Position numbers and translations under genes: made by a program
Assembly: GCA_907163375.1 (NCBI GenBank)
Contig: CAJQUW010006771.1
Span: 186,001-250,000 of the forward strand
Reading direction: 5' to 3'
Origin: Prostheceraeus crozeri
Lineage: Eukaryota; Platyhelminthes; Polycladida; Euryleptidae
DNA: 64,000 bases
In this document: positions 6,301 through 22,406 of the stretch, one piece after another
How positions within the stretch are numbered: the first letter of the stretch is position 1
How the letters are laid out: every line of letters starts with the position of its first letter
Notes under the pieces: model-generated
The model's database searches: none
Seen by the model: the letters and a program-made list of their open reading frames with translations, nothing else
What the model was told of the DNA's origin: nothing

Positions 6301-6311
6301 CTTGATGTTAT

Positions 6312-6360: not shown

Positions 6361-6460
6361 TAGCGAGCCTTCCACAGTGAGAATCATTCCATCGTTGAAT
6401 CACACGAGTGACGGACGCACATTTCCTCTCTCTAGTTCCCTATTCTATTATCCAACTAAA

Positions 6461-7143
6461 ATGGTAAGTCGCTACTTTCCTCCCTCTCCTCCCTTGAACG
6501 TAAACTTAATACAATCTTTTTTCATTTTCAGGCATCTACTCCATCTGCTGCACTAGTAGGAAAAAATGGCGGTCAAACGTTACAAGGTTCGCTACGATCA
6601 GATCATCTACAACTGAGGCCAGTGGAAGAAACAACCAAGGTACATAATCCTACACCGCTACAGCGTAAATTTAAACAAGTCTTGCGTTATGACGATCATA
6701 GCGTAGTACTCCAAACGGGAATGCTCCCTTCCACGGATGTCAAGATAATGCACAATCAGTATGGGGACTACATACTGATCCCCGTGAGTCCGTACATTCG
6801 CCACCAACTTGATATTATTGAGGAGTACGTGACATTAAATATGGACATTCCTACTCCTCTTGCTCAAGAGTGGAAGGCGAGAGATGACAAGGATACTCCC
6901 TATAGAAAGATTTGGGATGGCAATCAAATTTGCCTACCGATATCACATTGGTGCACTTACTATAAGAAGGAGGGAGATCATTCAACACCCATCACATGCG
7001 ACGAGCTCGGAGAAGGTACTTGGGATATCCTTTTCAAAGTGAATGGACTATATTATGGTCGGCACAAGGATAATAAAATAGCCTCTCCATGCATATGGAA
7101 TCCATCCTATATATTCCAAAACCACACAACGTGGACGACATAA
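6461..7143 (+). CDS. Polinton early-type protein, spliced start codon, function unknown
   Basis: The gene consists of ATG (6461-6463) followed at once by GTAAGT, a 68-bp pyrimidine-rich intron ending TTTTCAG at 6531, and an open frame from 6532 to the stop at 7143. That gives about 204 residues beginning M-ASTPSAALVG. The body has a hydrophobic-polar pattern such as YGDYILIPVSPYIRHQL and, near the end, GTWDILFKVNGLYYG. I do not recognise a family. Its position as first gene behind a strong promoter suggests an early product, and a DNA-binding role is possible but not shown. No ATG fits the frame upstream within exon 2, which is the main support for splicing. Confidence 0.75.
6464..6531 (+). 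other. 68-bp intron directly after the start codon
   Basis: The donor is ATG|GTAAGT and the acceptor TTTCATTTTCAG|GCATCT, with a run of pyrimidines between them. Splicing joins the start codon to GCA TCT ACT in the frame that stays open to 7143. The polymerase gene at the other side of the element has the same design. Confidence 0.8.
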
Positions 7144-7191
7144 TTGATCAAATCCTTAACAGCAGTGATACGAAGCGCAAGTCGGAGAAGA

Positions 7192-7392
7192 ATGCTGCAT
7201 CAAAACGCAAATCAAAGAAGGAGAATTACTAGTCCTTTCCTAACTCTACCCTATGACAATTCGCTTATGTGCTTTGAGTGTCGTAGACGTGGTCTTATTA
7301 GATACATTTTACTTCTTCGTTGCCATCATATCATTTGTGTATTTTGTCGTGAAAAGCATCGATGTAATTCTTCATTTTGTAATATGTTATAG
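7192..7392 (+). CDS. Small RING-like zinc-finger protein 1
   Basis: A 66-residue frame begins at the first ATG. The N-terminal third is basic. The rest has CFEC, then RCHHIICVFC, then CNSSFC, so cysteines and a histidine fall as C-x2-C, C-x-H-x2-C-x2-C and a final C pair, as in RING fingers. RING domains of this type usually act as ubiquitin E3 ligases. In a virus-like element a role in altering host proteins is plausible but unproven. It starts only 48 bp after the preceding stop and precedes an exonuclease-like gene on the same strand. A second small RING-like gene lies at 8632. Confidence 0.55.
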   Translation: MLHQNANQRRRITSPFLTLPYDNSLMCFECRRRGLIRYILLLRCHHIICVFCREKHRCNSSFCNML

Positions 7393-7420
7393 AACGTTTC
7401 CTTAGATGTGTAAATTTCCG

Positions 7421-7426
7421 TTTTAG
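7421..7426 (+). promoter_or_regulatory. Candidate 3' splice site for the exonuclease-like gene
   Basis: TTTTAG|GCTTCT is in frame with the downstream protein. Joining it to the ATG leader exon at 6463 would add M-A-S-I-I-I before the motif I strand. That would make the left unit alternatively spliced from one leader. RNA evidence is needed; the sequence only makes it possible. Confidence 0.45.
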
Positions 7427-7975
7427 GCTTCTATCATCATTTTTATGGATTGTGAGGGTGAACCTGTACAGGAGCTCAGTGCTATTGCTATGAACAATTG
7501 GACATATCAGATTGTCAGTGTCTATCATCAACATGCCAACTGCAATCCCAATGTTGATCAATGGGCGAGAAAACACATTCATGGACTTAATCTGAAATAT
7601 TTGCAAGACTATGGCTTTTCTTGTGAGAGTGCTCTTCTTATTGACTTTAAACGATGGTTAGCTGCTTTCAATGTTATACGCATCTTTTGTAATAATCCTG
7701 GTGAGGAGGGGAAAGTATTTCCCAATCTAATCATTGATGATATTTTGCTCCCGCCTTGGGATAGTAGAGTGAATCAACACTACCATGAAGTCACGAAACG
7801 TTTTAAGGATTTGTCTGTTCCTATTTTGTCTGTTCGTTGTAGTAGCTACGTTCATAACCAATGCTTCTTTCCTCCTTACCTCAACACTGCCAAAGTCCTG
7901 TATGGTTATCATTGCTCGCTGTATGATAGTTACCAGCTGTATCTATTTTATCTGTTTCAAACCATTGATTTATAA
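7427..7975 (+). CDS. DEDDh-type 3'-5' exonuclease-like protein
   Basis: The frame is open from a splice-acceptor-like TTCCGTTTTAG ending at 7426. The first codons GCT TCT mirror the M-A-S start of the first gene, so the same ATG leader exon may be spliced here; otherwise translation starts at the ATG at 7445. Near the N-terminus IIIFMDCEGEPVQELSAI fits exonuclease motif I (D-x-E). A middle stretch reads ARKHIHGLN. Near the C-terminus HCSLYD gives the H-x4-D of motif III. Motif II is unclear: FCNNPGEE sits where an Asp would be expected. The length of about 183 residues suits a single-domain enzyme. Likely role: trimming or proofreading DNA during replication, or degrading nucleic acid. Confidence 0.65.
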   Translation, partial: ASIIIFMDCEGEPVQELSAIAMNNWTYQIVSVYHQHANCNPNVDQWARKHIHGLNLKYLQDYGFSCESALLIDFKRWLAAFNVIRIFCNNPGEEGKVFPNLIIDDILLPPWDSRVNQHYHEVTKRFKDLSVPILSVRCSSYVHNQCFFPPYLNTAKVLYGYHCSLYDSYQLYLFYLFQTIDL

Positions 7976-8062
7976 TGCATGCTTGTTACCGTTATTCAAT
8001 ATATGTTACTATGAGAAGAGTTGTTGTTTTCATGCAATGGATGGGTTAGATAAAGGGCGATC

Positions 8063-8473
8063 ATGTCTTTCTCAAACGACTGCGGAACATTACATTTTCA
8101 TAGGCAAAGTTTAAAAGGAGCTGTTCAAGATTATGTGATAAATTTTCATAAAGATGAGACCGACATCGAAGCAGTGGTCGATGATGCTAGCACTCCATTT
8201 CTAGAGTTAATGAATACATTCTCTGATAGCATTGTCATGGCGCGATTAGTTGCGAAAATTAAGTTTAGTCATTTTGGAAAGGAAGAGGTGGAAAGTCGCT
8301 CTTTCCATTTTGCTTCTTATTCAATGGAAGTGGTAGATCACCCCGAAGAATTTTTTAAAAGACATATGATAAAAATTGCTGAACGTCTTAACGCATTTAA
8401 CCATCATGGTAGCAGTCTAGTGATTGAAGCGATTTCAGATATTCACATTCAACTTTCCATAAAGAAAAATTGA
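8063..8473 (+). CDS. Stand-alone homologue of the polymerase N-terminal domain
   Basis: The protein has 136 residues, beginning at ATG after a short gap. Its second half can be aligned by eye with residues ~170-260 of this element's own polymerase N-terminal part. Both contain S-x-EVVD, then an acidic/aromatic pair, a helix with H, FN followed by S-x-L, and a final I-x-I-x-LS strand. I know this domain as the segment in front of the zinc finger in Polinton-type polymerases of invertebrates, sometimes also found alone. Its biochemical role is unknown. Because the two copies are in one element, partner or regulatory function with the polymerase is a reasonable guess. The frame is intact. Confidence 0.55.
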   Translation: MSFSNDCGTLHFHRQSLKGAVQDYVINFHKDETDIEAVVDDASTPFLELMNTFSDSIVMARLVAKIKFSHFGKEEVESRSFHFASYSMEVVDHPEEFFKRHMIKIAERLNAFNHHGSSLVIEAISDIHIQLSIKKN

Positions 8474-8631
8474 AAATACAGTGGTACTTGATTGTAGCAC
8501 AACTGGTTTTCGAGCTATGTCTGCTCACTCTCGAAGTATATTCCTTCTGTACATGCGTCTATTATTTAGAAAAGGCTAGCAAATTCATATCTTCAAAAAG
8601 ACTTGCTATAGACATCAGTAACGGTGAAACT

Positions 8632-8799
8632 ATGTGTTGTGATGTATGTAAGCGAAAGGATGGAAATGAAAAGCGCATCTTCAAGAGATGTAAGCATGCT
8701 TTTTGTCAACGCTGTTTCATACGTAATTGCATTCAACTTTGCAAATGTAACCACTGTGATATTGCTCATTTCGAGTGTCACTTATGTCGCAATAGTTAG
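8632..8799 (+). CDS. Small RING-like zinc-finger protein 2
   Basis: A 55-residue protein starts at the ATG before MCCDVC. Cysteine/histidine groups are CCDVC, RCKHAFCQRC, CKCNHC and CHLC, which satisfy a RING-type C3HC4 spacing with an extra pair. The frame is open upstream to 8470 without an ATG that would suit, so a spliced extension is possible. It ends just before the octamer-like element that precedes the core-protein gene. Role as for the other RING-like gene: candidate ubiquitin ligase, unproven. Confidence 0.5.
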   Translation: MCCDVCKRKDGNEKRIFKRCKHAFCQRCFIRNCIQLCKCNHCDIAHFECHLCRNS

Positions 8800-8804
8800 T
8801 ACCT

Positions 8805-8812
8805 ATGCAAAT
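8805..8812 (+). promoter_or_regulatory. Octamer-like late motif (ATGCAAAT) before the core-like gene
   Basis: The motif lies 46 bp upstream of the start at 8851. It is one of six such sites, each shortly upstream of a virion or late-type gene. ATGCAAAT is also the binding site of POU/Oct factors. Confidence 0.5.
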
Positions 8813-8850
8813 GTGGTAAAGATAGGTTTTAGCAAATACTAACACGGAAA

Positions 8851-9201
8851 ATGGCGAAACGTAAAAGTCAAAAGTCTTCAAAGTTTTCTTCAGCCATTCA
8901 AGCTCTCCGACGAATGAAAGCAAATCAGCGATACAATGCTATACGACATGCCAACGATAAATTCATTCGTGAAATTATTTCTCATGTCAGAAAGTTGAGG
9001 ACGAAGAAATTAGCCCCAAAACAACGAAAGTTACTTAAGCGATATGCTACGAAATTGCGTTTCATCTCCAATCCTAAAGTCACCCTTCAAAGAAAGAGGA
9101 AAACTCTAACACAAAAGGGCGGTTTCCTTTCAGCAATACTTCCAATGTTAGCTCCTGTCGTGGGCAACCTATTGGGTAATATCTTTGGCTCTAGGCGTTA
9201 A
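8851..9201 (+). CDS. Basic core-like protein (pX-like)
   Basis: The protein has 116 residues and is very rich in Lys and Arg through residues 1-90 (AKRKSQKSSK at the start, LQRKRKTLTQK later). It ends with a GGFL motif and a hydrophobic segment, GGFLSAILPMLAPVVGNLLG, and a short basic tail. A basic body followed by GGFL and a hydrophobic C-terminal stretch recalls the precursor of the adenovirus minor core protein. Similar small proteins are common in invertebrate Polintons. The likely role is condensing the packaged DNA, with a membrane-active or processed tail. It is followed 31 bp later by the packaging ATPase. Confidence 0.65.
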   Translation: MAKRKSQKSSKFSSAIQALRRMKANQRYNAIRHANDKFIREIISHVRKLRTKKLAPKQRKLLKRYATKLRFISNPKVTLQRKRKTLTQKGGFLSAILPMLAPVVGNLLGNIFGSRR

Positions 9202-9203
9202 TT

Positions 9204-9211
9204 ATGCAAAT
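9204..9211 (+). promoter_or_regulatory. Octamer-like late motif (ATGCAAAT) before the ATPase
   Basis: It lies 29 bp upstream of the ATPase start and just past the stop of the core-like gene. Context attATGCAAATgttg. Confidence 0.5.
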
Positions 9212-9232
9212 GTTGAATCTCAAAGTATTAAA

Positions 9233-9850
9233 ATGGATTTCAGACTTCAATGTGATAAAGTTCTGACTGTATCAGGTCCATCTCATGCAGGTAAAACTGT
9301 TTTCACGCTGAATTTATTGGATAAAAGAAGGGATTTGTTTAAGGAACCTATCAATCGAGTGATTTGGTGTTATGGTATTTATCAACCGTCGCTGTTTCAG
9401 GAATTGCAAAGTCGCAACTTTATTCGACATGAAGGAATTATTGCAGTGGATAAACTTCAGTCTAATGATGTTGTTGTATTGGATGATTTATTAAAAGAAA
9501 GTAAGAATTCAAAAGATGTTACAGATATGTTCACTCGTGCAGCACATCATAAAAGGTGCTTTATCATCTATATCACACAAAATTTGTTTCCTGATGGAAA
9601 AGAAGCTCGTACACGAAACCTGAATACACACTATTATGCTATTTTCAAGAATCCGCGAGATAAAAGTCAATTCGAAATTTTAGCGCGACAAGTTGCACCC
9701 AGAGGATCAAAAGCCTTAATTGAAATTTTTCAAGCAGCTACTGAAAAACCACACGGTTACTTATTCATTGACTTTACGCAAGAGTGTCCGGAAGAATTTA
9801 GATTTCGAAGTGATATTTTGAAAACTCCCATGATTATCTACAAACTATGA
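9233..9850 (+). CDS. FtsK/HerA (A32-type) genome-packaging ATPase
   Basis: A 205-residue protein starts at the first ATG of the frame. Walker A is GPSHAGKT at residues 15-22. Walker B is VVVLDD at 80-85 with two acidic residues. A sensor-like ITQN lies at 114-117. The size and the order strand, P-loop, DD, ITQN match the single-domain packaging ATPases of Polintons and related DNA viruses, which pump the genome into the capsid. The frame is intact. It overlaps the following gene by four bases (ATGA). An open stretch upstream without ATG (from 9185) is not part of it. Confidence 0.92.
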   Translation: MDFRLQCDKVLTVSGPSHAGKTVFTLNLLDKRRDLFKEPINRVIWCYGIYQPSLFQELQSRNFIRHEGIIAVDKLQSNDVVVLDDLLKESKNSKDVTDMFTRAAHHKRCFIIYITQNLFPDGKEARTRNLNTHYYAIFKNPRDKSQFEILARQVAPRGSKALIEIFQAATEKPHGYLFIDFTQECPEEFRFRSDILKTPMIIYKL

Positions 9851-10539
9851 GTTCTTATTCTCGCATGATTGTTATTCCTCAGGATGAATATGTACAATTG
9901 ACTGCCATGCAGCAAGTAAAGCAACCTCTTGCAAATCAAATGTATAGGAAAGAAATAGATTATCAGCAAAATGTTCACATCAAAGATCCACATCGTGCTG
10001 TATTATTACAATCGGAAACTGTTGAGCAATTGAAAAACTTGAAGAATAAGATGCGTGACTCTGTATCGACTGCTACACCTTTAGCATCTCGCGCACATGC
10101 CATATCTCTTTTCAACAGTATTGAACCCCACCTCAATGTAAATGATAGAGGAGAAATCATTACAGATGAAAATAAAGTGATTGATGCTTCACGTTATGAA
10201 GACTTGATTCAGTATGCGACACGTAGAAAGCGCCGTCAGGGCTATGTTCTACCTGGTTGGTCATACTTTCTTAAACTATTGAAAAAGCATAATGTACCAA
10301 AATTTGCTTTGAATAATGAGACATTGAAAGAACTTGATTCAACAGTGGCTACTGCTCCAATGCTTCAGGCGATGAAAATGCCAACAAATTGGTTTAAGAC
10401 GTCACCTGCTACATCCCCTCCCACACTCACTAAGCAAACAAGAGGAAGAACTCGACGTAGATCTACATCACCACTAAAACTAGTAAAAGGAAAACGTAAA
10501 ACAGCTCCTCCCAGGAAATACATGTTCTCAGACTATTAA
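9847..10539 (+). CDS. Conserved Polinton protein of unknown function, basic C-terminus
   Basis: The protein has 230 residues and an intact frame. The N-terminal half is polar and helical (VEQLKNLKNKMRDSV). A central motif RRKRRQGYVLPGWSYF at about residues 127-142 is one I remember from proteins beside the ATPase or integrase in invertebrate Polintons. The C-terminal 50 residues are Ser/Thr/Arg/Lys-rich (RGRTRRRSTSP) and look like a nucleic-acid-binding or phosphorylated tail. It starts inside the ATPase stop codon, so both may be translated from one message. A virion or packaging role is likely from position; no enzyme motif is visible. Confidence 0.7.
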   Translation: MSSYSRMIVIPQDEYVQLTAMQQVKQPLANQMYRKEIDYQQNVHIKDPHRAVLLQSETVEQLKNLKNKMRDSVSTATPLASRAHAISLFNSIEPHLNVNDRGEIITDENKVIDASRYEDLIQYATRRKRRQGYVLPGWSYFLKLLKKHNVPKFALNNETLKELDSTVATAPMLQAMKMPTNWFKTSPATSPPTLTKQTRGRTRRRSTSPLKLVKGKRKTAPPRKYMFSDY

Positions 10540-10586
10540 TATGAAGCAGATGTGTTCCTTGCCATGTAATGAGCCGCCAGAGGTGA

Positions 10587-11807
10587 ATGTCGTTGTCACT
10601 TACATTTGCTGCGCCAGCTCTCACAATGAAACCCCTAAGCAATGTGAACACGATCGCAAAACCGCTAAAGCTAAATGCTGCAGTTGATATAAATGTAGAA
10701 AGGCAAGAAAACAAAAAGATGAGAAGGAGGAAAAAGAGTCAGTCGTCATCGGCTGAACGTTTGAAGTCAATCTATTATGATGTAAAACATCCGGCAGGAT
10801 TTGCATCTATCAAGAAATTATCAAAAGCCAGTGGTCTTCCACAATCACAAGTGAAACGATGGTTAAAGGGTCAGGCTACCTATACACTCCACAAACAAGC
10901 GAAAAAGAAGTACCGCACCCGCCATTATATTGTTCATGACATCGATGAACAGTGGCAAGCAGATTTGTGTGATGTTGCCTCCATTTCAAAACATAACTCG
11001 GGTAATAATTTTATTTTAACCGTCATTGATATTTTCTCGCGTTATGCGTGGGCTCAACCTTTAAAAACTAAAGAAGGGAAAGGAGTAGCAAAAGCATTCC
11101 AAACAATTTTTCGAGAAGGTCGCATTCCAAAAAGAATTCAGAGTGATCAAGGAAAAGAGTTTGAAAATCAGCATGTGAGAAGATTATTTGAGAGGCATGA
11201 CATTGAGTTGTTTAGTGTAAACAGTGCTTATAAAGCTGCACTCGTTGAACGTTTTAATCGCACATTAAAAAATCGCTTGTGGCGACATTTTATTGCCAAC
11301 TTGACACAAAATTGGACAAAGGTTCTACAAGATGCACTCCATGCCTACAATCACTCTATCCATCGTTCTATTGGACTCAGACCAGTAGATGTAAATGCTG
11401 ACAATGTATATAAAGTGCGCGAATCATTCCAACGTAAACGCACTCATGTGGAAAGTGATGTGAAAATTGGTGATAAAGTTCGTATCTCAAAAGTGAAGAG
11501 TGTTTTTGCTAAAGGGTACCTTCCGAATTGGACAGAAGAGGTATTTACAGTATCAAGGATTAATCAAAAAGACTCTCCGACCACCTACAAGTTGAAAGAT
11601 TACGATAATGAAGAAATTGAGGGTAGCTTTTACCGCGATGAGATTGAGGTAGTCACTGAAAGTGAAACATATTTGGTAGAGAAAATCATTCGATGTAAAA
11701 AACGACAAGGTGAAGAATGGTGTCTTGTTCAATGGACTGGTTATCCTTCAAGTATGAACTCTTGGATGCGTCGTGCCGACATCTTTCATCTAAGTGATCG
11801 ACAGTGA
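10587..11807 (+). CDS. Polinton DDE integrase with C-terminal chromodomain
   Basis: The protein has 406 residues. After a basic N-terminus it has a helix-turn-helix-like region (about 55-100, ending VKRWLKGQATYTLHK). The catalytic core follows: D126 in WQADLCD, D187 in IQSDQGKEF and E221 in LVERFNRTLK. This is a retrovirus-type D,D-E triad with 33 residues between the last two. Residues ~290-350 form an SH3-like C-terminal domain. A chromodomain at about 362-398 contains YLVEKII, then VQWTGYPSSMNSW. The enzyme inserts the element and makes the 6-bp duplication seen at its ends. The chromodomain may direct it to marked chromatin. The frame is intact. I chose the ATG at 10587; the next in-frame ATG (10626) is also possible. 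Confidence 0.95.
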   Translation: MSLSLTFAAPALTMKPLSNVNTIAKPLKLNAAVDINVERQENKKMRRRKKSQSSSAERLKSIYYDVKHPAGFASIKKLSKASGLPQSQVKRWLKGQATYTLHKQAKKKYRTRHYIVHDIDEQWQADLCDVASISKHNSGNNFILTVIDIFSRYAWAQPLKTKEGKGVAKAFQTIFREGRIPKRIQSDQGKEFENQHVRRLFERHDIELFSVNSAYKAALVERFNRTLKNRLWRHFIANLTQNWTKVLQDALHAYNHSIHRSIGLRPVDVNADNVYKVRESFQRKRTHVESDVKIGDKVRISKVKSVFAKGYLPNWTEEVFTVSRINQKDSPTTYKLKDYDNEEIEGSFYRDEIEVVTESETYLVEKIIRCKKRQGEEWCLVQWTGYPSSMNSWMRRADIFHLSDRQ

Positions 11808-11810
11808 TTC

Positions 11811-11818
11811 ATGCAAAG
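11811..11818 (+). promoter_or_regulatory. Octamer-like late motif (ATGCAAAG)
   Basis: It lies 38 bp upstream of the ATG at 11849 of the broken small basic protein and directly after the integrase stop. Confidence 0.45.
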
Positions 11819-11848
11819 TTGTAACTAACAATGTTTAGGGCTTGAGCT

Positions 11849-12302
11849 ATGAATCCAACTGCCTCATTTTATTCACGACCTCCTATGTAAGTGGTGGAGG
11901 ACAAATTTACATCGGCGCTCGCCGCCAACGTGGAGGTAGCATACGTGGTGCACTGAAATCTGTTGTAGCACCTCTCATATCCAATGTCGGTAGATCTTTA
12001 AAAAAAATGTTTTAAGTAATGCCGTTGGCTTTGCTGGTGATGTTGCTAGTGATCTTTTCAGAGGTAGAAGTTTTAAGAGCAGTTTGTTGAATCGTGGGAA
12101 GGAACGCGGTTTAAAAACATTGAAGCAGACCTTTGCTGGTGTTACTCAAGGAAAGAAATCGCCTAAACGAATGAATAAAGGAAGGAGGAAACATCGCGGA
12201 GCTGGTAAGGTGCGATCTTCAGTCAAAAGGCATTCACGCAAACGTCGCAGAGGCTCTAATCATTCATCAGGCGCTAAACGACGACGCTGCCATAACTTCT
12301 AA
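11849..12302 (+). pseudogene. Small basic Polinton virion-type protein, two frameshifts
   Basis: Reading starts MNPTASFYSRPP and meets TAA at once (about 11885). The next frame carries a glycine-rich GGGQIYIGARRQRGG and continues to a run of eight A at 12000-12007, where it stops again. A third frame then continues with GFAGDVASDLFRG and ends in a Lys/Arg-rich tail (RRKHRGAGKVR, KRHSRKRRR) at 12302. The order GARRQRG, hydrophobic helix, glycine-rich helix, basic tail is typical of a protein encoded just before the capsid gene in many Polintons, which by position may be the counterpart of a minor internal capsid protein. As read it is broken twice; the A-run is also where sequencing errors are most likely. 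Confidence 0.6.
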
Positions 12303-12304
12303 TT

Positions 12305-13540
12305 ATGGAGTGTAAAACTTCCGGGTTTTGTTTGTTTGATCAACAAGCCATATAGACAGATATTCTTAGTTCAAGTATTGCAGATTATCATCCTCGAACA
12401 GCTGAGAATGCTGGCCCCATTGAATTTGTTATTCCTGGTGGTAGTGATGACTACATAGATTTGAGTTATGCGATGCTTGATTTGAGGTTTAGAATTCAGC
12501 AAGTAGATGGAACTGCTATTGACGATGCACATAAAGTTGGACTGAACAATTTACCATTGACTACATTACTTCGCGATGTTTCTCCAACGATTGGAGAGCA
12601 GCAGGTGGAAGGTGGTCAAAGCGATTATTCCTATAAATCATATTTCAATCATGTATCACAGTTTCATCCAGCAGCACAAAAAAGTCATATGGAAGCCATG
12701 GGATGGTACAGAGATGAAGCAGGAAAATTTGATGTTGAAACAAACAGTGGCTTTGTAAAGCGATCTGCTATGATTAAAGATAGTAGAGTATGTCAGCTAT
12801 ATGGTCCGCTGAATTTAGACTTCTTTAGACAGTCAAAGTTTTTACCCTGTAATACCAGCATGCGACTCAAGCTGACATTGAATAAGCCTGAATTTGCGAT
12901 GAATGCATTTGCTAAAGTTGACAATTTTAGAATTCATGTGGAAGATATTGCACTTTACATTCGTCGAGTAGTACCGAATCCAAGTGTCATTAGAGGGCAT
13001 GCTGAAAGTCTTAACCGCCAAAATGCCATTTACCCCGTTCAGCATACAAAGCTTCTCACCTTTACAATTCCAAAAGATCAAAAGAGTTTCATGAAAGATG
13101 GCCTCTTTCCATCGGAAGCACCGAAGCTCCTCATGGTGGCAATGGTTGAAAATGATGCATTTAATGGTAATATAAAGAAGAATCCTTTCAATTTTAAACA
13201 CAATCAGTTAAGTGAAATTGCTTTACGTGTAAATGGTGTGAGTCATCCTGGTCCACCCTACAAACCAGATTTTGCTTCGGATCAATTTATGCGCAGTTAT
13301 GTTGATTTTATGGATGTCTTTGGCTTTTACAATACGGATGACACCAACGGACTGACTATGAAAGAGTTTAAGAGTGGATATACTATTTATGCATTTGATT
13401 TGACTGCTGACAGCGATATTAGTGCACCCTATCGTCAAGCGAACGTGCCTCATAATATTCGTTTGGATTTGACGTTCAAAAGAACACTGCCTGAGACGAT
13501 CAATGTATTAATTTATGCAGTCTTCGATTCAAATATTTAA
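12305..13540 (+). pseudogene. Polinton major capsid protein, early in-frame stop
   Basis: The frame runs from ATG 12305 to 13540 (about 410 codons) with a single TAG at 12353-12355, codon 17. After the stop it continues without a break: GPIEFVIPGG and YIDL, then strands typical of a double jelly-roll protein, ending in INVLIYAVFDSNI. The GPIEF...YIDL N-terminus and the final VLIYA-FD strand are what I know from the proteins annotated F54H12.2-like, which are the Polinton (and adintovirus) major capsid protein. It would form the hexagonal capsomers of an icosahedral shell. An internal methionine would lose the first strands. A splice bypass of the stop is conceivable (an AG lies at the TAG) but not supported. 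Confidence 0.8.
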
Positions 13541-13581
13541 ATTACAAAGTATCGTGACGTGATTCTTCAGTATAATCGTTA

Positions 13582-14058
13582 ATGAGTTGGTTGACTGCTG
13601 ACGATGATGTTGGTTGACTGCTTAAAACTAAAGTGCAGCGTAATGCAGACGAAGCGACGTTGAAAGCTTTCGATAATGTCTATTCACTCGATACCTTACC
13701 ACCTGCAGTAAATCACTATCCCATCTTTATTGTGCTAAACACTCATTCGCAGAATTTAGGCGGTGAGCATTGGAAAGCGATCTTTATTGGAGAAGACCGA
13801 CGTAGTGAACTATTTGACTCTCTTTCTCAACCTCCAAATATACCAACACAGCAGTGGTTGAGAAAAAATACGCGTCAATATCAGCGAAATGAAAGCATAC
13901 TAAAACATCCACTTTCATCAACGTGTGGTGCTTTTTTACTGTACTTCATCTTAAAACGTTTACATTTATCTCGATTTGTATCTGTTATTCAAAACTTTTC
14001 ATGTAATCCTTCCTCTAATGAAAAAATGATTTGTAAGTTCTATCATGATTTGAAATAA
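13582..14058 (+). pseudogene. Adenovirus-type cysteine protease, early in-frame stop
   Basis: The frame begins ATG at 13582, meets TGA at 13615-13617 (codon 12), then stays open to 14058. Downstream it has the family signatures: a strand ending FIVLNTHSQN, GEHWKAIFI with the catalytic His, SELFDSL with the acidic partner, and SSTCGAFLLYFIL with the nucleophilic Cys. Such proteases mature capsid precursors in adenoviruses and Polintons and belong to the Ulp1-like clan. The word ggttgactgc is repeated around the stop, suggesting a small duplication there. Translation from a later start would keep the catalytic core but miss the first strand. It ends with AATAAA overlapping the stop codon. Confidence 0.85.
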
Positions 14059-14089
14059 AAACATCATGTTGGAAAATTTGTTTTTTATT
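14054..14089. terminator. Facing polyadenylation signals (protease / TBP-like gene)
   Basis: AATAAA lies at 14054-14059 on the plus strand, overlapping the protease stop codon. On the minus strand it lies at 14084-14089, overlapping the stop of the TBP-like gene. The two convergent units end within 40 bp of each other. Confidence 0.75.
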
Positions 14090-14630
14090 TTACAGTCCGC
14101 TGGGTACGTACATACTCGATGAGATAGTCTAGGATCACATTTGCTTGTACGTGAGATTTTAGTCCAGTAATGATCACTTTACTATTATGAAAGATTGCAA
14201 CATGCACAGGTAACCAACAACTAATGAGAGCTGCAGGAAAATGTTCGGGTTCATAACACAAATTGTAACTGCTGCTACGAATCTTCAAAAATGATACACT
14301 TTCACTCAATTGAGTAGAGATCACCATATTGTCCACAGTCAGATTCGACATCACACACCTCTCCCTCTTCCATATCCGACGTAGTAGTCTCTGTAGCTCT
14401 AAGCGCATTGACTGCGCCGATGAATGAGAAAGGGCGCCGAGAATCTGTACAGTCCCATTTGGGAAGAGTAGAAGATTCCGTGAATTGTTCATCTTCACCA
14501 CTAACATTTGAGGACGGCCCGGGTAATACTTGCTGTTTGGAAGGTGTTGGTGTAATGTTGTGAGATCGATTTTGGTGTAGAGTCTGAAGCGACGGAGAAT
14601 GTTGACGATGGTGTAGCGATGGCGCTTCAT
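14085..14630 (-). CDS. TATA-binding-protein-like (TBP-like) protein, two-repeat fold
   Basis: A 181-residue protein starts at MKRHRYTIVNIL. It follows the TBP core through both halves. The first half has IVNI, a DL helix, NSKYYPGRPQMLVVKM, then LLLFPNGTVQILGA and a Ser-containing helix. The second half has LTVDNMVIS, CYEPEHFPAALI, a proline before a strand, then AIFHNSKVIITGLKS and a closing helix. NMV-S, YEPE-FP and F-x-x-(S)K-V-x-x-TG are hallmark TBP elements. The Phe residues at LLF, EHFP and AIF that would kink DNA are kept; the fourth, in the first half, is replaced by Pro. It would bind TATA boxes and nucleate transcription. The frame is intact. Its 5' part overlaps, in another frame, the tail of the neighbouring PC4-like gene. 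Confidence 0.82.
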   Translation of the reverse strand: MKRHRYTIVNILRRFRLYTKIDLTTLHQHLPNSKYYPGRPQMLVVKMNNSRNLLLFPNGTVQILGALSHSSAQSMRLELQRLLRRIWKRERCVMSNLTVDNMVISTQLSESVSFLKIRSSSYNLCYEPEHFPAALISCWLPVHVAIFHNSKVIITGLKSHVQANVILDYLIEYVRTQRTVK

Positions 14631-14952
14631 GATGAAAAAATGAGTAAATTGAGCGATGTACCTTCCTTTTATACTTTTTCCAACTACCTTGATGAAATGT
14701 GAAGTTAGTATGAAGTTGGGAATGATAGAGTTGAATTCGCCGTTTGTTGACGCGCAGCCAGATGCGATTTCCAATACGTGAATGTCTTTTCATATAGAAG
14801 TATTTCAAATCCTTCATGATATGATGTAAAGATTGAAAATGACGATAAGATAAAGCAAACTCTCTTCTCACATTTCCAGTTGAATCTTTGAAATAGACGT
14901 TTCGATCATGATCCGTTTCAATACGTTGTAGTGAATCTAATTTCCAACTCAT
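14302..14952 (-). CDS. PC4-like transcription coactivator-type protein, copy 1, with acidic tail
   Basis: The protein has 216 residues. Residues 1-110 are paralogous to the next gene upstream: W-x-LDSLQ-I at the start, GNV-FK-S-G, a helix with FQSLHHIMKDL-YF, R-G-x-WL, IQLYHS and W-KYKR-HRSIYSF. The core motif (basic strand, glycine, R-x-x-LS, then a helix starting at an aromatic residue and ending DL) resembles the PC4/p15 single-stranded-DNA-binding domain that assists TBP-dependent transcription. The match is by eye. Residues 110-216 are Ser/Thr/Pro-rich and then acidic (DMEEGEVCDVESD) and are coded over the TBP-like gene in another frame. Such an acidic tail fits an activator, but its reality needs checking. 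Confidence 0.5.
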   Translation of the reverse strand: MSWKLDSLQRIETDHDRNVYFKDSTGNVRREFALSYRHFQSLHHIMKDLKYFYMKRHSRIGNRIWLRVNKRRIQLYHSQLHTNFTFHQGSWKKYKRKVHRSIYSFFHHEAPSLHHRQHSPSLQTLHQNRSHNITPTPSKQQVLPGPSSNVSGEDEQFTESSTLPKWDCTDSRRPFSFIGAVNALRATETTTSDMEEGEVCDVESDCGQYGDLYSIE

Positions 14953-14974
14953 GCTGCGTGGTAGTCATGTCTGA

Positions 14975-15331
14975 TTAAGATTTGCATAGTAGGGTGATGA
15001 ACTCACGACGAATAAATGTCATGATGGAGCGATGTATGTATCTTCTATACTTCTCCCAATTGTATTTGCGAAATGAGAAACAGTTTGCGGAATGAGAATG
15101 GTAGATTTGAATTTCATTTCTGTAATGTTGAAGCCAAACTTGATCACCCAAGGAGATGAATCTTAATGTTTCAAAATATTCCAAATCTCTCATGATATCA
15201 TTGAGGTTGACAAATTGTCGCCATGTTAATGTAATACCTCTTGATGTATGACCATGAGAATTTTTGAAATGTACGTTTCCATCACGATCAACTCTGATAT
15301 ATTGTAGAGAGTCCAAAATCCAAGTCTTCAT
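14975..15331 (-). CDS. PC4-like transcription coactivator-type protein, copy 2
   Basis: A 118-residue protein starts at MKTWILDSLQ. It contains YIRVDRDGNVHFKNS, then RGITLTWRQFVNLNDIMRDL, then LGDQVWL, IQIYHS and WEKYRRYIHRSI. The RGITLT-x-x-QF helix is the part closest to PC4 proteins, which bind melted DNA as dimers and help RNA polymerase II initiate. It is a tandem paralogue of copy 1 without the long acidic tail. Only 35 bp separate its start from the divergent gene at 15367, and that gap includes TATAAAA. The intact frames of both copies and of the TBP-like gene contrast with the damaged virion genes. Confidence 0.55.
   Translation of the reverse strand: MKTWILDSLQYIRVDRDGNVHFKNSHGHTSRGITLTWRQFVNLNDIMRDLEYFETLRFISLGDQVWLQHYRNEIQIYHSHSANCFSFRKYNWEKYRRYIHRSIMTFIRREFITLLCKS
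14980..14987 (-). promoter_or_regulatory. Octamer-like late motif (ATGCAAAT), minus strand
   Basis: It lies 35 bp upstream of the start of PC4-like copy 1, at the very end of copy 2. It is the only minus-strand member of the set and points toward its gene like the others. Confidence 0.45.
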
Positions 15332-15337
15332 GATGTT

Positions 15338-15366
15338 ATGCAAAGTCGCAGATCAGCAATATAAAA
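15338..15366 (+). promoter_or_regulatory. Octamer-like motif and TATAAAA between divergent genes
   Basis: ATGCAAAG lies at 15338-15345, 29 bp before the start at 15367. ATATAAAA immediately precedes that ATG. The short divergent gap must serve both the PC4-like gene leftward and the virion-type gene rightward, so part of each promoter overlaps coding sequence. Confidence 0.5.
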
Positions 15367-16763
15367 ATGTCGTTTTATCATATTTTGCTTAGCAATGCGG
15401 CCGCAAATAGATTTGCTAGTAATCGAGCCGCACTCTTTTCTACTCCCATTGATCATACACAACAGCTAAATGGAAATTGGGAAGTGGGTGTCACTCAACT
15501 TGTTTATAGCAACTGTGTCTATACTTTTGATCATGAGGTGATGACTATTAATATGAGACGCACAGCTGCTTACCAATGTGAAAAGGGCTGCCGAGTATAC
15601 ATTCCACAGTGGCCAAAGAAAGATCTCTTATCATGTAAAAAGTTTATATATGATTTCTTGAATAAAGCGTGTAAACATATTGTCCAATTTACTCCGCACA
15701 ATGATGATCATAATTATGTACATCATGTAGTTGAGAAAGATTGGATTGTTGGATTAAGTCCAAGTTTAAGAAATGATTTAGGTTACCTCGCTAGCGCCTT
15801 AACAAGCTATGATAATTTTAATGTTAATTACCACATAAGTGGTCATAAACAGTTAATATATCGAGAGGAAGCTTATTATGTAGATCTTATTCCAAGAAAT
15901 GAGAAGACGTTGGTGAAGAAGATTGTGATTAAGCCAAGAAAGACGAACATGACTCCTGAAACATTATTGAAGAAATTTAATTATCTCCTTCGAGTTGATG
16001 GTAAACAAGTGGCAACATTGACTTATATCAAATCATCTAATCATATTGCAATAAGTAAATTAAATGATGATGATCTAGTATTAGTTTGTTCAAAAGATTT
16101 TCATCAGTTCTTACGACATCATTCTGCAGCTGTTCATGGAAAATTTGATATGCAACATTTACCATGTGAAAGGTCAAATCAATTTGATACAGAATGGACC
16201 GTATCTTTATACAGAAAGTGTGTAGAGCCTTTCGGTGGTATCTTACATGAAACAAGAGTGTTGATGCCTCGCATTATTACTTCGGTTAAATTGGTTGTAG
16301 ATTATTTAAATGAAGTGATTAATGAGCAACATATTTCATTTTCTGAAAAAGAAGGTGTTTTTTCTCTCACTATAAGTGGAAAAGGTATTGAACTAATTAT
16401 GGATAAAACTCTAATGGACATTTTGGGTTTTGATCAAAATATCCTTAAAAGTGGTACTGTAACCAAAGCTAGCGCAGACATGTCGCTATCGCGTCGTATT
16501 AACTATTTTCAGATATATTCCAATATTGGTGAAGATGTACGTGTGGGAGATGTTGAAGCTCCATTGCTAGCAATGATAACATACCAGCCAAAAAGCTGCA
16601 GATTTTATCTGAGTATACTTTCAAGAAAGTGCATTATACAAAGCTGAAATCAAACTACATCCCACAAATTGATATTGCCATTTATGACGATGCTGGTGCG
16701 TTGATTCCTTTTCATAAAGATGCTGTGACAAGTATCACACTCCATTTCCGAATGAAGAGTTAA
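15367..16763 (+). pseudogene. Virion-type Polinton protein (WEVG family), copy 1, 3' frameshift
   Basis: About 426 residues read cleanly from ATG. They open with a strand, then SNAAANRF and LNGNWEVGVTQLVYSNCVY. The motif L-x-G-x-WEVG-x-x-x-x-x-Y near the N-terminus marks a family I know from many invertebrate Polintons. Two later segments each end in L-x-x-LGF-type turns (MDILGFDQN), and near the end VGDVEAPLL is typical. At about 16585-16600 the frame shifts. The other frame then carries IDIAIYDDAGALIPF and ends LHFRMKS at 16763, the expected family C-terminus. It is probably a structural or host-attachment protein of the particle (inference from position and repeats). Confidence 0.7.
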
Positions 16764-16770
16764 TGCAAAA
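16763..16770 (+). promoter_or_regulatory. Octamer-like late motif (ATGCAAAA)
   Basis: It lies 40 bp upstream of the ATG at 16803 and overlaps the end of the preceding gene. ATGCTAAT and an AATATATTTT stretch follow it. Confidence 0.45.
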
Positions 16771-16802
16771 GTATGCTAATATATTTTTCCAATGTGAATA
16801 AT

Positions 16803-18323
16803 ATGGAAAGTGAAAATAAGGACTCGTTTCTAATCTACTTACCCAGTAATGCTTCTATGAATAAATTTCCCAAAAATAAACCATCAGACTATCGAGTAGA
16901 ATTAAATCGCCCACTACATTTAGAAGGTGAATGGGAGGTTGGCGTTTCTAGTATTTGCTATGATAGCAATATTCAGAATGTGAATGATTTGGAAGAAATG
17001 ATATTGACTCCTCGCACCCATGATTGAATAACGATGAATAATGCATTCCAGTTCCCATACAATTTAACATCAGATGGAAAGTGGAACTATGAATGGATTC
17101 AGATAAAATCAGATTATTATGAACCATTTGGGAATGAGAAAATTATTAAGGCATTCAATAGTGGTAATACTTCCATCATGAAGAATAGAAATCAGAAAGC
17201 TTATGAGTTTACTATCTATCATTGGAGTGGGAGAGAGTTCCTTCGCTTTCATTGTTTTACTAAAGGTCTTACACTGAGGTTGGATAATGAATTCTATCCA
17301 CATCTCGGTTTTGGTCATGGACTACATCTAACGTCAATTGCTACTGCAAATGTTAAAAAAGTTTATTCAAATCGAATCAACAAATTTCATTATAGATTTA
17401 AAATATTTGATGAAGATGTTGTAGAATGCGAAGAACGCATCATTTTGAAAAAGCGTGGTGTTCAACCTTTATCACTTACTGAGTTAGTAAAACGATGGGA
17501 TGAGACTGTGGGTAAGAAGTATGGAGAGAAAATTATGGCGGACAAAAATAAGTTGGTTATTCAGAAATATAATGACAAACTTACAGTTTATTTCTCTCCA
17601 ACCTTGCGTCATTTTGTAAGACATCCAACCCCTATTATTGGAAGCGGTCTGGTGTATGCTTCTCATGAATATCACACTAAAGCTGATTCAGTTAATGATG
17701 AATGGTGGGTGGATATCTATGGTGATCGCATCAAGAAAATTTACCAGTCTTATGAAGAATCTAAAGTTGCTATCAATATAATGCCGCGTCTATATCATAC
17801 AGTTGAAAGCTTCATTCATGTAGTAAATCCTTATATACAACAGAAGTTGAAGCATGTGATGAAAAGTAAATATGATGTAAAGACACACCACATTTCGTTT
17901 TCAATTGAAAATCAACGCGTTGTTCTGAAACTGGGCGATGACATTCAATGTCAATTGAGTAAAAATTTGAAAAAACTCTTTGGTTTTTCAATGCTACAAA
18001 CTGTGTTTACTGCTGCGCATACGATTGGTATAGAAACAACAATGACACTTGAGAAACATGAACAGCACCTTTACATTCAAAGTGATTTGATTCTACCTAT
18101 TTCTGTTGGTGAGAAAAAAGAATACATTTTACGCGATTTCATTCATGATAAAGACGCTTCATATGGAATAGTCGAGAAGATGTTTGAATCTATTTTCTAT
18201 CATCCCGTCGTCAAACAAACTATACCCTCTATTGCTATCAAAATTACCAATGGTTTACAAGAGTGCATCCATGTGAAAGATACTAAATCCCTCGTAACTT
18301 TAGTGTTTCGGAAAACAAAGTGA
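16803..18323 (+). pseudogene. Virion-type Polinton protein (WEVG family), copy 2, in-frame stop
   Basis: The start is MESENKDSFLIYLPSNASMN, followed by HLEGEWEVGVSSICYDSN, the family motif. A TGA at 17025-17027 interrupts the frame after 74 codons. The same frame then continues open to 18323. Later segments include HLGFGHGL, LFGFSMLQ and VGEKKEYILRDF, matching the repeated LGF and VG-LL features of copy 1, and the C-terminus SLVTLVFRKTK fits the family end. The two copies are diverged tandem paralogues. Length without the stop (~506 codons) exceeds copy 1. Probably a second particle protein; no enzymatic motif is visible. Confidence 0.7.
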
Positions 18324-18338
18324 AGTCATTGTGATATG

Positions 18339-18352
18339 TTTATTGAAATAAA
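18339..18352. terminator. Overlapping polyadenylation signals on both strands
   Basis: AATAAA reads at 18347-18352 on plus, and as its complement at 18339-18344 on minus. The plus signal is 24 bp after the virion-type copy 2. The minus signal is about 160 bp past the polymerase stop. Confidence 0.7.
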
Positions 18353-21300
18353 AATATGTATATGAAAAAGTCTTTTCACAGATATAGGGGGAATGAGCTG
18401 ACTGTAGGCATATATTCACAAGGAAGAAACGATCTCATGCGATACATAAAACAACCATGTATATCTACAAAAAGCAACATCAAAATACTCAGTTAAAGTT
18501 GATTATGTCAATACATCTCCTGAATGTGGTAGCGTGAGTTTTATTCTTTTGGGTGGAGGTATGTTTGTGTCAGGATGTCCATGTGGAAGAGATGTGTTAT
18601 GACCTATCCAACACCTCTTATCTTCCCATGCTGAAAGTGCTCGTTTCTTGAACGTGTGCGTTTTCACAGTATGAACTTGAGATTTTAAGATTGTCATATT
18701 GACAAACGTTATAGTTTTATTTTTATAGGCCTTCTTATAGGATCGATGTTTCATTTTGTGAACAATGGATTTTGATATACCTTTAGCACGCTTAATACTA
18801 TCTGCACATTCTTTTAATTTCATGGAATACATTTTAGGACGGAGGAGAATCATTTCATCTATTTTCTTTCCTGCTGTTTCATCCTTAAAACAACCAAGTT
18901 TGGCTTTATTCTGTATGGAATAGAGTGGATGAGTGGGATTGTAGTTAGATGTGTCGAAATATTTTTCTAATGACTTAGCTACTTCATTAAAATTTAAATC
19001 TTTTTGAGTGGTAATTCCTAAAAAGAAACTATCTGTATCACCACCCAACAAACGAACCTCTTTTACGAGAGGGCATGGTTTTAATATTTTGTAGAAGAGT
19101 TGATACATTTCAAGCTTGGAATAATCTAAAACGGCTTGCCCAATATAGATGGGTTTGCACAACTCAACTTCAGATTTTATCATTTTAACACCTACAAGAT
19201 CCTCATCGATGATGTCTCTATCAATGAAAAGAGGTGATGAGGTCAATTTGTGATATTTTTGTTCATCAACGACTAGTTTGTAGTTCATACGTTTTCTAAC
19301 ATCCTCCATGGTCTTTCCGAAAAGATTGTTATTCTTATATTTATAAAAATCCTTTTCAAAATTATTTTGGACTAGTGCACGTTTTTGACTGTTACTATCT
19401 ATGTAAGGTTTGAGGAAGGCTTTCTGTCTAAATTTGATAATGCGGTGAACTGACTTTAGAAGCATGCCCATTTCTAAATAGAATTTTAGTATGCAGAAGT
19501 GCACGAGATAATTTTTCTTATCATATTGGGTGAGTAAAAGTTTGCGGCATGGTTTGTACCTTGGCTGTCCACACTCTGTTAAGTTATTATGAAATTGTGA
19601 CATGAATGGTGAAAACATATCTTCAGTCACTTCACCAGATTCAGGTGCGAGTGGGAAATCAGCAGTTTTATTTTTAATGCTATTTGGATAAATCAAATCC
19701 ACTTCAAAATAATATCCACAATCACCTTCATCTGGAATCTTCAGTATGTTTGAAGGGTTGGAGTAATACTCAAGCTCATCTTGATTTAACCAACTAAACT
19801 CGGAATGAGGTAGTGGTTTAGACAGTGAACTGCCATATAAATTATTTTGGTCATAGTACTTTAGGTGGATATGATCATCACCAACTGTTTTAGATTTTAT
19901 ATGATGTTTATTTACAAATGTGAGACCACCGCGTATTCCGCGCTCAAATATATTATACATCTCCGGGTCTTGTAAGAGATGAATGGTCTCACCAGTCATT
20001 TTAAAGGCTGATTTAAAGGACATGGCTGGTAGACTGACAAAGTGGACAGGATCTAATTTGTCTTCTTCTAATGCCACTCGTCGAAATTCCTGAAAGACAT
20101 CAGCCAGCAAAATGACATCTAATTCTAAGTAAGCGATCATATAATCGCCAAACGTTTTACAATCAAATTTTAACCATGCCTCTTGAGCATGTTCATAGTC
20201 CTCTACTGGACAATCTTCACCCGTCAAATCGTTTTTGAATTTGTCAATGGAAGGAAGGGTTGTTTCATTTAGTTTAGACATTGAGCTAAAATACGCATAG
20301 GGAAAGACTTCTTTGCGAGTGATTATTTCATCCGTTAAGTTTGGATAGTGTTTCTTCAAAGTTTGACTATGGGGAAGAAACTTGAGATTACGAACGAGAG
20401 AAGCTAGTGACGCTGACATGAATTGAAATGAATCTAAATATTTTATTTCGAAGAAGACTGTCTTATTTTCTTTAGTTTTATCAACTGGTACTTTTGCTGT
20501 CATTGCCATGAATTTTTCTCTCGTTTGCGCTATTACATTAAACTGCACCGATTTCATCTGGCTCAACCCTCCTTTTATGAGCATATGACTGTCATAGCCC
20601 TTAAAGTTATGAAAAATGACGGGTAGTACACGACGTCTCAACCTAAGTGAAAAGTTACATTTGGAGCAGAGTGCGTTTCTAAATTTACCAGTGATGTGAT
20701 CATGATCACGCACTTTCTTAATTTTATCGTCATCAAACGTTTTATGACATTTAGGACAGGATGTGCAACTTTCAAATTTTTGTTTGTCTTCATCTGACAT
20801 ATGTAGTGACTTACGCTGCAATTGGGAATCATATGATTGTTGAAATTTAGCAGCTTTATCGAGAAATTCTAGAAATTTTGAAATGCAATCTTCACCTTGC
20901 CAAGTATGCATTTTGTTTTGTCTATTCCTAAAGTGGTCATGCCATACTTCATAGCAGGATATGGCTGCTGGCTTGTGGATGATATCATCAATGTAGCATT
21001 CTATGTCTGCGTAAATGACACGCAGGAGACTTAATTCGTCACCATTATCCCTATGTGAAAATATTTTATCTTTGGGCATGCGTTCCATTTGTAATTTACC
21101 TCGCTTGCACCATTCATGGTGAGTTTCAAATTTATCTTACTCCAAAAGGAGCGGATGCAGCGGTCGCATACAAAATGTTCACCTCTTTTAGAGTGCCCCA
21201 AGTGAGTGTACAAGCGAGAGATTTTGGGAATACCACAGTAGTGCCATTCCTCGCTATCATCTTGTTTTACTAATAAGAGGTTGACTACACGTTCAAAACA

Positions 21301-22286
21301 AGTTGAACGTGAATTATAGCGGGCACCCTTCAACCCCTTCTCCCCCACGTGAACGACAATTTTAATCTTATTATGTTTTTCGAACGTTTCTACATCTTTG
21401 ATTTTCATGTTGTTACTATCACAACCTTCAAAGTCTAGTTCATCCTCCCACTGTCTATAGCTATAGGTATGATTTCGATTCGCGTTGATATCATTATAGT
21501 GAAGGATGGATAGGACTGCATATTTGAAACACTGTGATTTACAATCGACATTGATGACAGCTTTCTTATTATACAACGTTTTTGGTAGTTTAAATGTGCC
21601 TCGAGCTGCATGACTTTCTAATAGGGAAATTTTGAATATGGCTGAGTCCACACCATCAAAAATGAGAGCGCTGTCGCGTTGATTGAATTTATCTACAGTT
21701 GATTTTAAATATTGAATGTGAAAATTTAGCCAAGACTCGCAGTCTACAACTTCAGTTGCGGAAGAGGAAGGAACATGAAACTGTATTCTCTCCGTCACTT
21801 GACCCGTTTGAAAATCTATCGTAATATATTTTAGTTTAAGGTAGATGAGCGCCTTCATTCTAAAATTGTCTAAATTGTTGAAGAGCGCTTCGATAATGTT
21901 AGAATTTTGAAGGAGCCACTCAGGAAAATCTACTATTTGAGTATTGGACTCCATGCAGTAGTCGCGTACTAAATTATTATGTGAAACATTAATGAGGGAG
22001 ATGGTAGAGGTACCGTTGGTGTAGTGATCATTTGCATGCGTGTGTTGAAGTCTGTGCGAAGATCGCTGAAAGTGACTATCAAAAGAAAGAGGGCACAAAT
22101 CGCAAGGAAAGGAGATGTCATCGTCAGAATCAACTTCACCTCCGGAGATTGACGCCGCTTTGCGTTGACAAACACGTTGTTTGATGTGTCGAAGGAGACT
22201 GTGCTTCCTTGTAAACATATGTCCGCAGTCGGCACATTCCCACTCGTTGCCTTGTCGCGAGAGTCCTGAGCTGGAACTCACATCAC

Positions 22287-22345
22287 CTGAAAGAGAAATC
22301 ATTCTATCATCTCTGTTCAAGTCTCAGTGTATTGTTACAACCTAC
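22287..22345 (-). other. Polymerase intron 2, 59 bp
   Basis: Minus strand donor CAAA|GTAGGT and acceptor TCTCTTTCAG|GTGATG. The 61-nt exon before it leaves one base, which completes a Ser codon with the GT of the next exon, so phase is preserved. The nearby alternative donor (GTTGTA) would create a stop. Confidence 0.65.
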
Positions 22346-22406
22346 TTTGACTTAACAACTCTAAACTTTCCTCGAGAAGGGAGGGCGTTGGTGATGAAGT
22401 TGATGC

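What the first reader, a model, noticed from the sequence alone, without database searches (positions are those of the whole stretch)
14085..14630. A Polinton that encodes a TBP-like transcription factor
The 181-residue product follows the TBP core through both symmetrical halves (IVNI..., NGTVQILGA; NMVIS, YEPEHFP, SKVIITGLKS). I do not know TBP as a normal Polinton gene. Large DNA viruses carry TBP-like proteins, so a virus-like transposon with its own TBP would control its own promoter choice. The frame is intact while virion genes around it are damaged.
Basis: partly seen in the sequence, partly recalled or inferred. Interest (0 to 1): 0.93.

Follow-up and report, generated by a model that had tools for sequence, protein, structure and literature searches.

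The report
Polinton carrying its own TATA-binding protein
A virus-like mobile element, present in many copies in a large eukaryotic genome, carries its own version of the protein that marks where genes start to be read, with one half kept standard and the other half changed, so it may choose its own promoters.

Summary
Confirmed. The minus-strand ORF 14085-14630 is a genuine two-repeat TBP (Pfam E 4e-21; AlphaFold model with TBP topology, pLDDT 92). It lies inside a Polinton-type element with ~0.7-kb inverted repeats and a 6-bp target duplication (5100-27246), beside the putative protease and capsid genes. 355 database proteins match its profile; 23 placed in a tree with 12 cellular and viral-contig TBPs form one clade (100/100) of unresolved origin. 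In six of six other genomic copies read, TBP sits between protease and ORF B. In 98 family members the C-terminal repeat keeps the canonical DNA- and TFIIB-contact residues in 96-98, while the N-terminal repeat has Pro for one intercalating Phe (97) and lost two groove-contact residues (98). ATGCAAA sits 29-46 nt upstream, in sense, of 6 of 18 element genes; the TBP gene has TATAAAAGG at -43. Best explanation: a viral core-promoter factor recruiting host TFIIB and Pol II. That it reads ATGCAAA is a hypothesis. Viral TBPs are known from herpes-, giant and mirusviruses; my paper searches, in an incomplete library, found none for Polintons. That TBP is specially preserved is not shown: the putative capsid gene is unbroken in 5 of 5 other copies.

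The parts
14085..14630 (-). TBP-like protein gene, 181 aa, both TBP repeats
5100..27246 (.). Polinton-type element, 22.1 kb, termini AGTAGT...ACTACT
   Evidence: inverted repeats
5094..5099 (.). left target-site duplication AAGGAT
27247..27252 (.). right target-site duplication AAGGAT
5100..5808 (+). left terminal inverted repeat
   Evidence: 83.5% over 729 aligned columns
26551..27246 (-). right terminal inverted repeat
14302..14952 (-). ORF B: product of unknown fold; its frame runs on 108 codons through the N-terminal part of the TBP gene
14975..15331 (-). ORF A: paralogue of ORF B (43% identity over 112 residues)
13633..14058 (+). putative Ulp1/adenovirus-type cysteine protease, convergent with TBP
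   Evidence: Pfam Peptidase_C48 only E 0.05, below cut-off; His and Cys motifs by eye
12305..13540 (+). putative major capsid protein gene, broken here by an in-frame stop near its start and ending early
   Evidence: 425-aa relatives, 723 hits; stops; capsid fold not tested
10587..11807 (+). rve-type integrase with chromodomain
   Evidence: Pfam rve 6e-11, Chromo 4.7e-6
9233..9850 (+). putative packaging ATPase
   Evidence: Walker motifs by eye; Pox_A32 E 0.03 only
18503..22323 (-). putative protein-primed DNA polymerase B with endonuclease VII domain, in two overlapping frames
   Evidence: Endonuclease_7 2.6e-6; polymerase motifs by eye only
15367..16647 (+). element gene of unknown function, distant paralogue of 17034
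16803..18323 (+). element gene of unknown function, split here by an in-frame stop
8805..8811 (+). ATGCAAA, 46 nt before gene 8851
9204..9210 (+). ATGCAAA, 29 nt before the putative ATPase gene
11811..11817 (+). ATGCAAA, 38 nt before gene 11849
14981..14987 (-). ATGCAAA, 35 nt before ORF B
15338..15344 (+). ATGCAAA, 29 nt before gene 15367
16763..16769 (+). ATGCAAA, 40 nt before gene 16803
14665..14673 (-). TATAAAAGG, 43 nt before the TBP start codon, inside ORF B

Best explanation
The gene is an authentic TBP homologue that belongs to a lineage of Polinton-type elements. Most likely it works as the element's own core-promoter factor. The saddle binds the minor groove of a TATA-like element, the conserved C-terminal stirrup (E127, E129, F131, P132) recruits host TFIIB, and host RNA polymerase II is thereby brought to the element's genes. 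The changed N-terminal half (Phe to Pro, Val to Gln, Thr to Leu at positions that touch DNA in cellular TBP) would shift preference away from the host TATA box, so the element could express its own genes as a separate class. Shown: the homology, the location, the family-wide residue changes. Inferred: DNA and TFIIB binding, promoter choice. A guess: that ATGCAAA is its site, and that its own gene is switched on by host TBP through TATAAAAGG. The roles of the named TBP residues are recalled, not from a call.
For: Pfam and PDB matches; confident TBP-topology model. In 98 family proteins of 150 aa or more, out of 121 held, residues equivalent to yeast F116, F190, F207 and E188 are kept in 98 of 98, E186 in 96, N159 in 96, T215 in 97; F99 is Pro in 97, V122 is Gln in 98, T124 is Thr in 0 of 98. 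TBPs from IMG/VR viral contigs keep F99 in 7 of 8 readable rows of 10, so the change was not seen there. TBP lies between the protease gene and ORF B in 6 of 6 pieces from other copies. A contig of 12,876 bases is the longest listed for both a 91% TBP half and a 98% capsid-type protein. ATGCAAA in sense at -29 to -46 in 6 of 18 upstream stretches; a 7-mer that common arose in 4 of 5000 sets of random element stretches and 10 of 5000 sets upstream of random ATGs.
Against: No binding, expression or TFIIB test. ATGCAAA is not enriched in the window as a whole (25 against 24 expected) and is absent before 12 of 18 genes, among them the putative capsid, integrase, protease, polymerase and TBP genes. 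I chose the gene starts and found the motif after looking. ATGCAAAT is also the octamer of host POU factors (recalled). The window copy has His where 88 of 98 family proteins have Leu in the TFIIB stirrup; 23 of 26 other copies have Leu there, so this copy may be impaired.
Confidence: 0.65

Rival explanations
1. The protein is a decoy or inhibitor: it keeps the TFIIB-binding C-terminal half but cannot bend TATA DNA properly, so it sequesters TFIIB and represses host transcription.
For: N-terminal DNA-contact residues changed in 97 or 98 of 98 members while the TFIIB stirrup is kept.
Against: The C-terminal half also keeps its DNA-contact residues, and the central Asn of both halves is kept (N69 in 86 of 86 readable rows, N159 in 96 of 98), which a pure TFIIB decoy would not need.
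Confidence: 0.15
2. Promoter choice in the element rests on host POU-type factors at the octamer ATGCAAAT; the TBP only boosts ordinary TATA promoters or serves replication or packaging.
For: 3 of the 6 motifs are the full octamer ATGCAAAT.
Against: Position (-29 to -46) and fixed orientation suit a core element better than an enhancer site; 3 of 6 lack the final T.
Confidence: 0.15
3. A host TBP gene or pseudogene captured once by this copy, of no use to the element.
For: None found beyond the isolated window view.
Against: 150 scored copies in the genome, TBP with the same neighbours in 6 of 6 read, 355 database relatives, and 23 of them as one clade on a branch of 2.1 substitutions per site.
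Confidence: 0.02

Closest known systems
Cellular TBP (PF00352), archaeal and eukaryotic
   Same: Two repeats, saddle topology, C-terminal DNA and TFIIB contacts, central Asn of both repeats
   Different: N-terminal repeat has Pro, Gln and Leu/Met/Phe/Ile for F99, V122 and T124 (yeast numbering); long separate branch
TBPs of giant viruses and mirusviruses (PMC12085832 and PMC10132985, passages read)
   Same: Virus-encoded TBP
   Different: Those viruses have far larger genomes with other transcription genes. The TBPs I fetched from IMG/VR contigs, virus type not determined, keep F99 (7 of 8 readable) and fall outside the clade; one (L033) attaches next to it with weak support, 64/44, and five group with archaeal TBPs
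Beta/gamma-herpesvirus TBP-like protein (BcRF1/ORF24; review PMC4893493, passages read)
   Same: A virus that depends on host Pol II uses its own TBP-like protein at an altered TATA element (TATT) of late genes: the closest functional parallel
   Different: Identity to TBP only around 10% per the review; six viral proteins needed (abstract start of PMC7498053); here homology is plain and no such complex is known
Polintons/Mavericks
   Same: Inverted repeats, 6-bp duplication, integrase, putative polymerase, protease, ATPase and capsid genes
   Different: A TBP is not mentioned in the five Polinton or virus-diversity papers whose main text I searched

Membership tests
TBP (PF00352) | Match above curated cut-off, two repeats | tested here: met
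   75 bits against 22.9, two stretches
TBP (PF00352) | Saddle fold | tested here: met
TBP (PF00352) | Four intercalating Phe | tested here: not met
   Three of four; F99 position is Pro in 97 of 98. TBP-related factors of animals are recalled to vary here too, so this limits the TATA claim, not the homology
TBP (PF00352) | Binds TATA DNA and TFIIB | not testable with these tools
   Residues for TFIIB contact kept in 96 and 98 of 98
Polinton | Long terminal inverted repeats and 6-bp target duplication | tested here: met
Polinton | Retroviral-type integrase | tested here: met
   rve 6e-11 plus chromodomain
Polinton | Protein-primed DNA polymerase B | tested here: inconclusive
   Motifs by eye; no Pfam or PDB polymerase match
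Polinton | Ulp1-type protease and packaging ATPase | tested here: inconclusive
   Peptidase_C48 E 0.05, Pox_A32 E 0.03, both below cut-off
[quoted passage not shown]
   425-aa conserved protein in the expected place; only one PDB match, E 2.7, unrelated; fold not modelled
Herpesvirus TBP-like protein | Part of a six-protein viral preinitiation complex at TATT boxes | not tested
   No search for the other five proteins was made

The most novel reading that the evidence does not exclude
Polintons of this lineage run a two-class transcription programme with host Pol II: host TBP starts the viral TBP gene through a TATAAAAGG box hidden in ORF B, and the asymmetric viral TBP then reads a private core element, TATGCAAA, in front of a second class of genes (putative ATPase, small basic proteins, ORF B, the 15367/16803 pair). 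This would be a parallel to the herpesvirus TATT system in an element of only 22 kb.
Probability: 0.25. Interest if true: 0.92.

Novelty: new variant of a known kind. Interest (0 to 1): 0.76.

Why it matters
Polintons are placed near the origin of many eukaryotic DNA viruses, yet how they direct transcription was not described in the passages I read. A TBP in a 22-kb element without an RNA polymerase gene that I could recognise shows that TBP capture is not confined to giant viruses, mirusviruses and herpesviruses. It gives a natural TBP with one standard and one altered half, which makes the question of how the TBP halves set TATA specificity directly testable. With 150 or more copies, one genome carries many genes for a relative of a general transcription factor.

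Tried and rejected
PC4-like reading of ORF A and ORF B: plausible by eye, but no Pfam PC4 match, hhalign against human PC4 probability 1%, E 0.055, and a model of pLDDT 47. Its strand/helix string fits two PC4-like units, but at that confidence it proves nothing; I do not claim it.

Overprinting of the TBP N-terminal half by ORF B: the frame stays open 108 codons, matched in 0 of 20,000 synonymous redraws and 5 of 20,000 within-gene permutations. Silent TBP changes among 27 copies are rarer there (11 of 75 sites) than in the rest (19 of 48; Fisher P 0.0024). Against it: with only the 21 fully colinear copies the difference is 10 of 75 against 10 of 48, P 0.32; changes in the ORF B frame are 16 amino-acid-changing to 1 silent; and among 26 copies ORF B has an internal stop in 4 and gaps in 5. 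Left open.

Selection on TBP from copies: pN/pS 0.18, but the copies were chosen by protein score, so this is biased and not used as proof. Likewise 149 of 150 scored copies without a stop are the best of 11,855 first-look candidates, and the six copies (no TBP stop in 6 of 6) come from that list.

Other Polintons with TBP in the viral and prokaryote collections: no hit with A1, the polymerase (25), the capsid-type protein (26, 37, 38) or the second TBP clade (126); these scans start from a few short patterns and can miss relatives. The origin of the family (host, archaeal or viral) is not resolved. The larger tree contained a 9-residue stub (L034) and is superseded; one search left out L034 and the cut L037, and both trees left out L035 and L036 as near-duplicates.

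Why 15 listed relatives (P0107 to P0121) are only the C-terminal half: either gene callers cut them because of the ORF B overlap, or the frame is broken there. Not resolved, as their DNA could not be read.

Full report
What is there. The minus-strand ORF at 14085-14630 encodes 181 residues. Pfam TBP scores 75 bits, cut-off 22.9, E 4.2e-21, over both repeats. The 35 matches among solved structures are TBPs of archaea and eukaryotes or fusions with them. An AlphaFold2 model from 32 sequences has mean pLDDT 92.3 and shows the repeated strand-helix-four strands-helix order of TBP, with the short helix of the second half missing. A comparison of folds with the PDB could not be run, the tool being closed.

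Where it is. Inverted repeats of about 0.7 kb end at 5100 and 27246 and are flanked by the same six bases, AAGGAT: a 22.1-kb insertion. Inside lie an integrase with chromodomain and a putative ATPase, protease, capsid gene and polymerase. The last four assignments rest on motifs, size and position, with sub-threshold Pfam scores or none; I call them putative. 26 bases lie between TBP and the convergent protease gene, and the TBP stop codon overlaps an AATAAA polyadenylation-like signal (by eye). Upstream on the same strand are two paralogues, ORF A and ORF B, 43% identical.

Copies in the genome. The window belongs to an unnamed assembly of 2.05 Gb; 150 TBP matches were scored, the window's own and 149 at 97-98% protein identity, the best of 11,855 candidates. 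Ten-kb pieces around six other copies all hold TBP between the protease gene and ORF B, followed by ORF A and the 15367 and 17034 genes. Integrase and the full putative capsid gene are present in 5 of 6, the sixth (L043) being disrupted there; ATPase matches are in 5 of 6 and polymerase matches in 5 of 6. In the window the putative capsid gene has an in-frame stop near its start and an early end and two other genes are broken. In 5 of 5 other copies with a full capsid span it has no stop, whereas integrase has one in 3 of 5 and the 17034 gene has stops in 2 of 3 whole spans read; TBP has none in 6 of 6, but these copies were picked by TBP score. So special preservation of TBP is not shown.

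Relatives elsewhere. 31 database proteins match the single sequence and 355 the profile (120 listed). All 120 listed carry Pfam TBP; sources are ena, lgn and jgi. Their contigs could not be opened. Two indirect signs of the same context. One short length, 1196, also coincides and is taken as chance. Second, of 18 relatives with residues upstream of the usual start, six (P0003, P0037, P0039, P0049, P0051, P0054) show, like the window, an Ile-Lys pair at the same distance before the start Met and then F-x-H, as expected if ORF B's 3' end overlaps there in each. P0075 has the pair one residue off; the other 11 are too short or differ (counted by eye after dropping 7 of its 25 rows in which the pattern had matched further in). 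This is weak evidence.

What is special. In 98 family proteins of 150 aa or more (of 121 held), the second repeat is canonical at positions that, from recalled structural work, intercalate (yeast F190, F207), line the groove (N159, V161, T215) or touch TFIIB (E186, E188): kept in 96 to 98 of 98. In the first repeat F116 is kept in 98 and N69 in all 86 readable, but F99 is Pro in 97, V122 is Gln in 98, and T124 is Leu, Met, Phe or Ile in 98. TBPs fetched from 12 IMG/VR viral contigs, 10 used, keep F99 in 7 of 8 readable rows; their virus types are not determined. A tree of 35 sequences puts the 23 family members together with support 100/100 on a branch of 2.1 substitutions per site; its attachment is unresolved. 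The window copy itself has His at the TFIIB-stirrup Leu; 23 of 26 other copies have Leu (1 His, 1 Arg, 1 not found).

Promoters. In stretches of 70 nt before 18 gene starts of the element, ATGCAAA occurs in six, all in sense and 29-46 nt before the start. Of the eight exact matches inside the element these are six. The largest 7-mer count reached six in 4 of 5000 sets of random element stretches and 10 of 5000 sets upstream of random ATGs. The window as a whole shows no excess, and 12 of 18 genes lack it, among them the putative capsid, integrase, protease and polymerase genes. The TBP gene has TATAAAAGG 43 nt before its start, inside ORF B.

Mechanism. The simplest reading is a viral core-promoter factor: the C-terminal half binds DNA and TFIIB as usual, the N-terminal half has changed specificity. 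The link with ATGCAAA is a hypothesis with clear tests; host POU factors at the octamer ATGCAAAT are the main rival. A TFIIB decoy is a second rival. The nearest known system is the beta/gamma-herpesvirus TBP-like protein at TATT boxes (PMC4893493, passages read), whose authors write that these were the first viral TBP-like proteins characterised, giant viruses excepted. Mirusviruses also carry TBP (PMC10132985, passages).

Print check. Full-text searches gave: Polinton with TATA-binding protein 3 papers, with TATA-box binding 3, with TFIIB 8; Maverick with TATA-binding protein and virus 2; polinton-like virus with TBP 2. I read matching passages in PMC10675990, PMC12085832, PMC4602308, PMC11464507, PMC7786948 and PMC10132985; none reports a Polinton TBP in those passages (PMC10675990 notes sporadic TBP genes in elements of putative mirusvirus origin). 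PMC2612703 and six of the eight TFIIB papers were seen only as listings. PMC11071308, PMC11071296, PMC10120064, PMC4642659 and PMC4028283 do not contain the words TBP or TATA in the main text. The library lacks most subscription papers and two Polinton papers I asked for, so absence from print is not shown.

Changes made on recheck: tree and gene-order statements narrowed to what was sampled, IMG/VR TBPs no longer called giant-virus, the 21-copy overlap test, the early end of the capsid frame and the stirrup residue of other copies added.

Noticed in passing
window 14302-14630: ORF B's frame stays open through the N-terminal half of the TBP gene, far beyond chance under synonymous redraws; fewer silent TBP changes there in 27 copies, but not significantly in the 21 colinear ones. 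Possible overprinted gene.
   Followed up: partly
window 14975-15331 and 14638-14952: Tandem paralogues upstream of TBP with a strand-rich pattern that looks PC4-like by eye; not supported by profile comparison or model.
   Followed up: partly
G000: A 2.05-Gb genome with at least 149 further copies of this TBP gene at 97-98% protein identity, suggesting recent amplification.
   Followed up: partly
window 23234-23641: Two 202-nt tandem copies, 97% identical, spacing 206, towards the right end of the element.
   Followed up: no
window 36810-37762, 52470-53342, 27186-27824: DDE transposase remnants outside or at the edge of the element; GIY-YIG fragments at 59587-61038.
   Followed up: no
P0107 to P0121: 15 listed relatives consist of about the C-terminal TBP half alone (88-90 aa); the seven whose sequences I read start at the same place within a residue or so.
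   Followed up: partly
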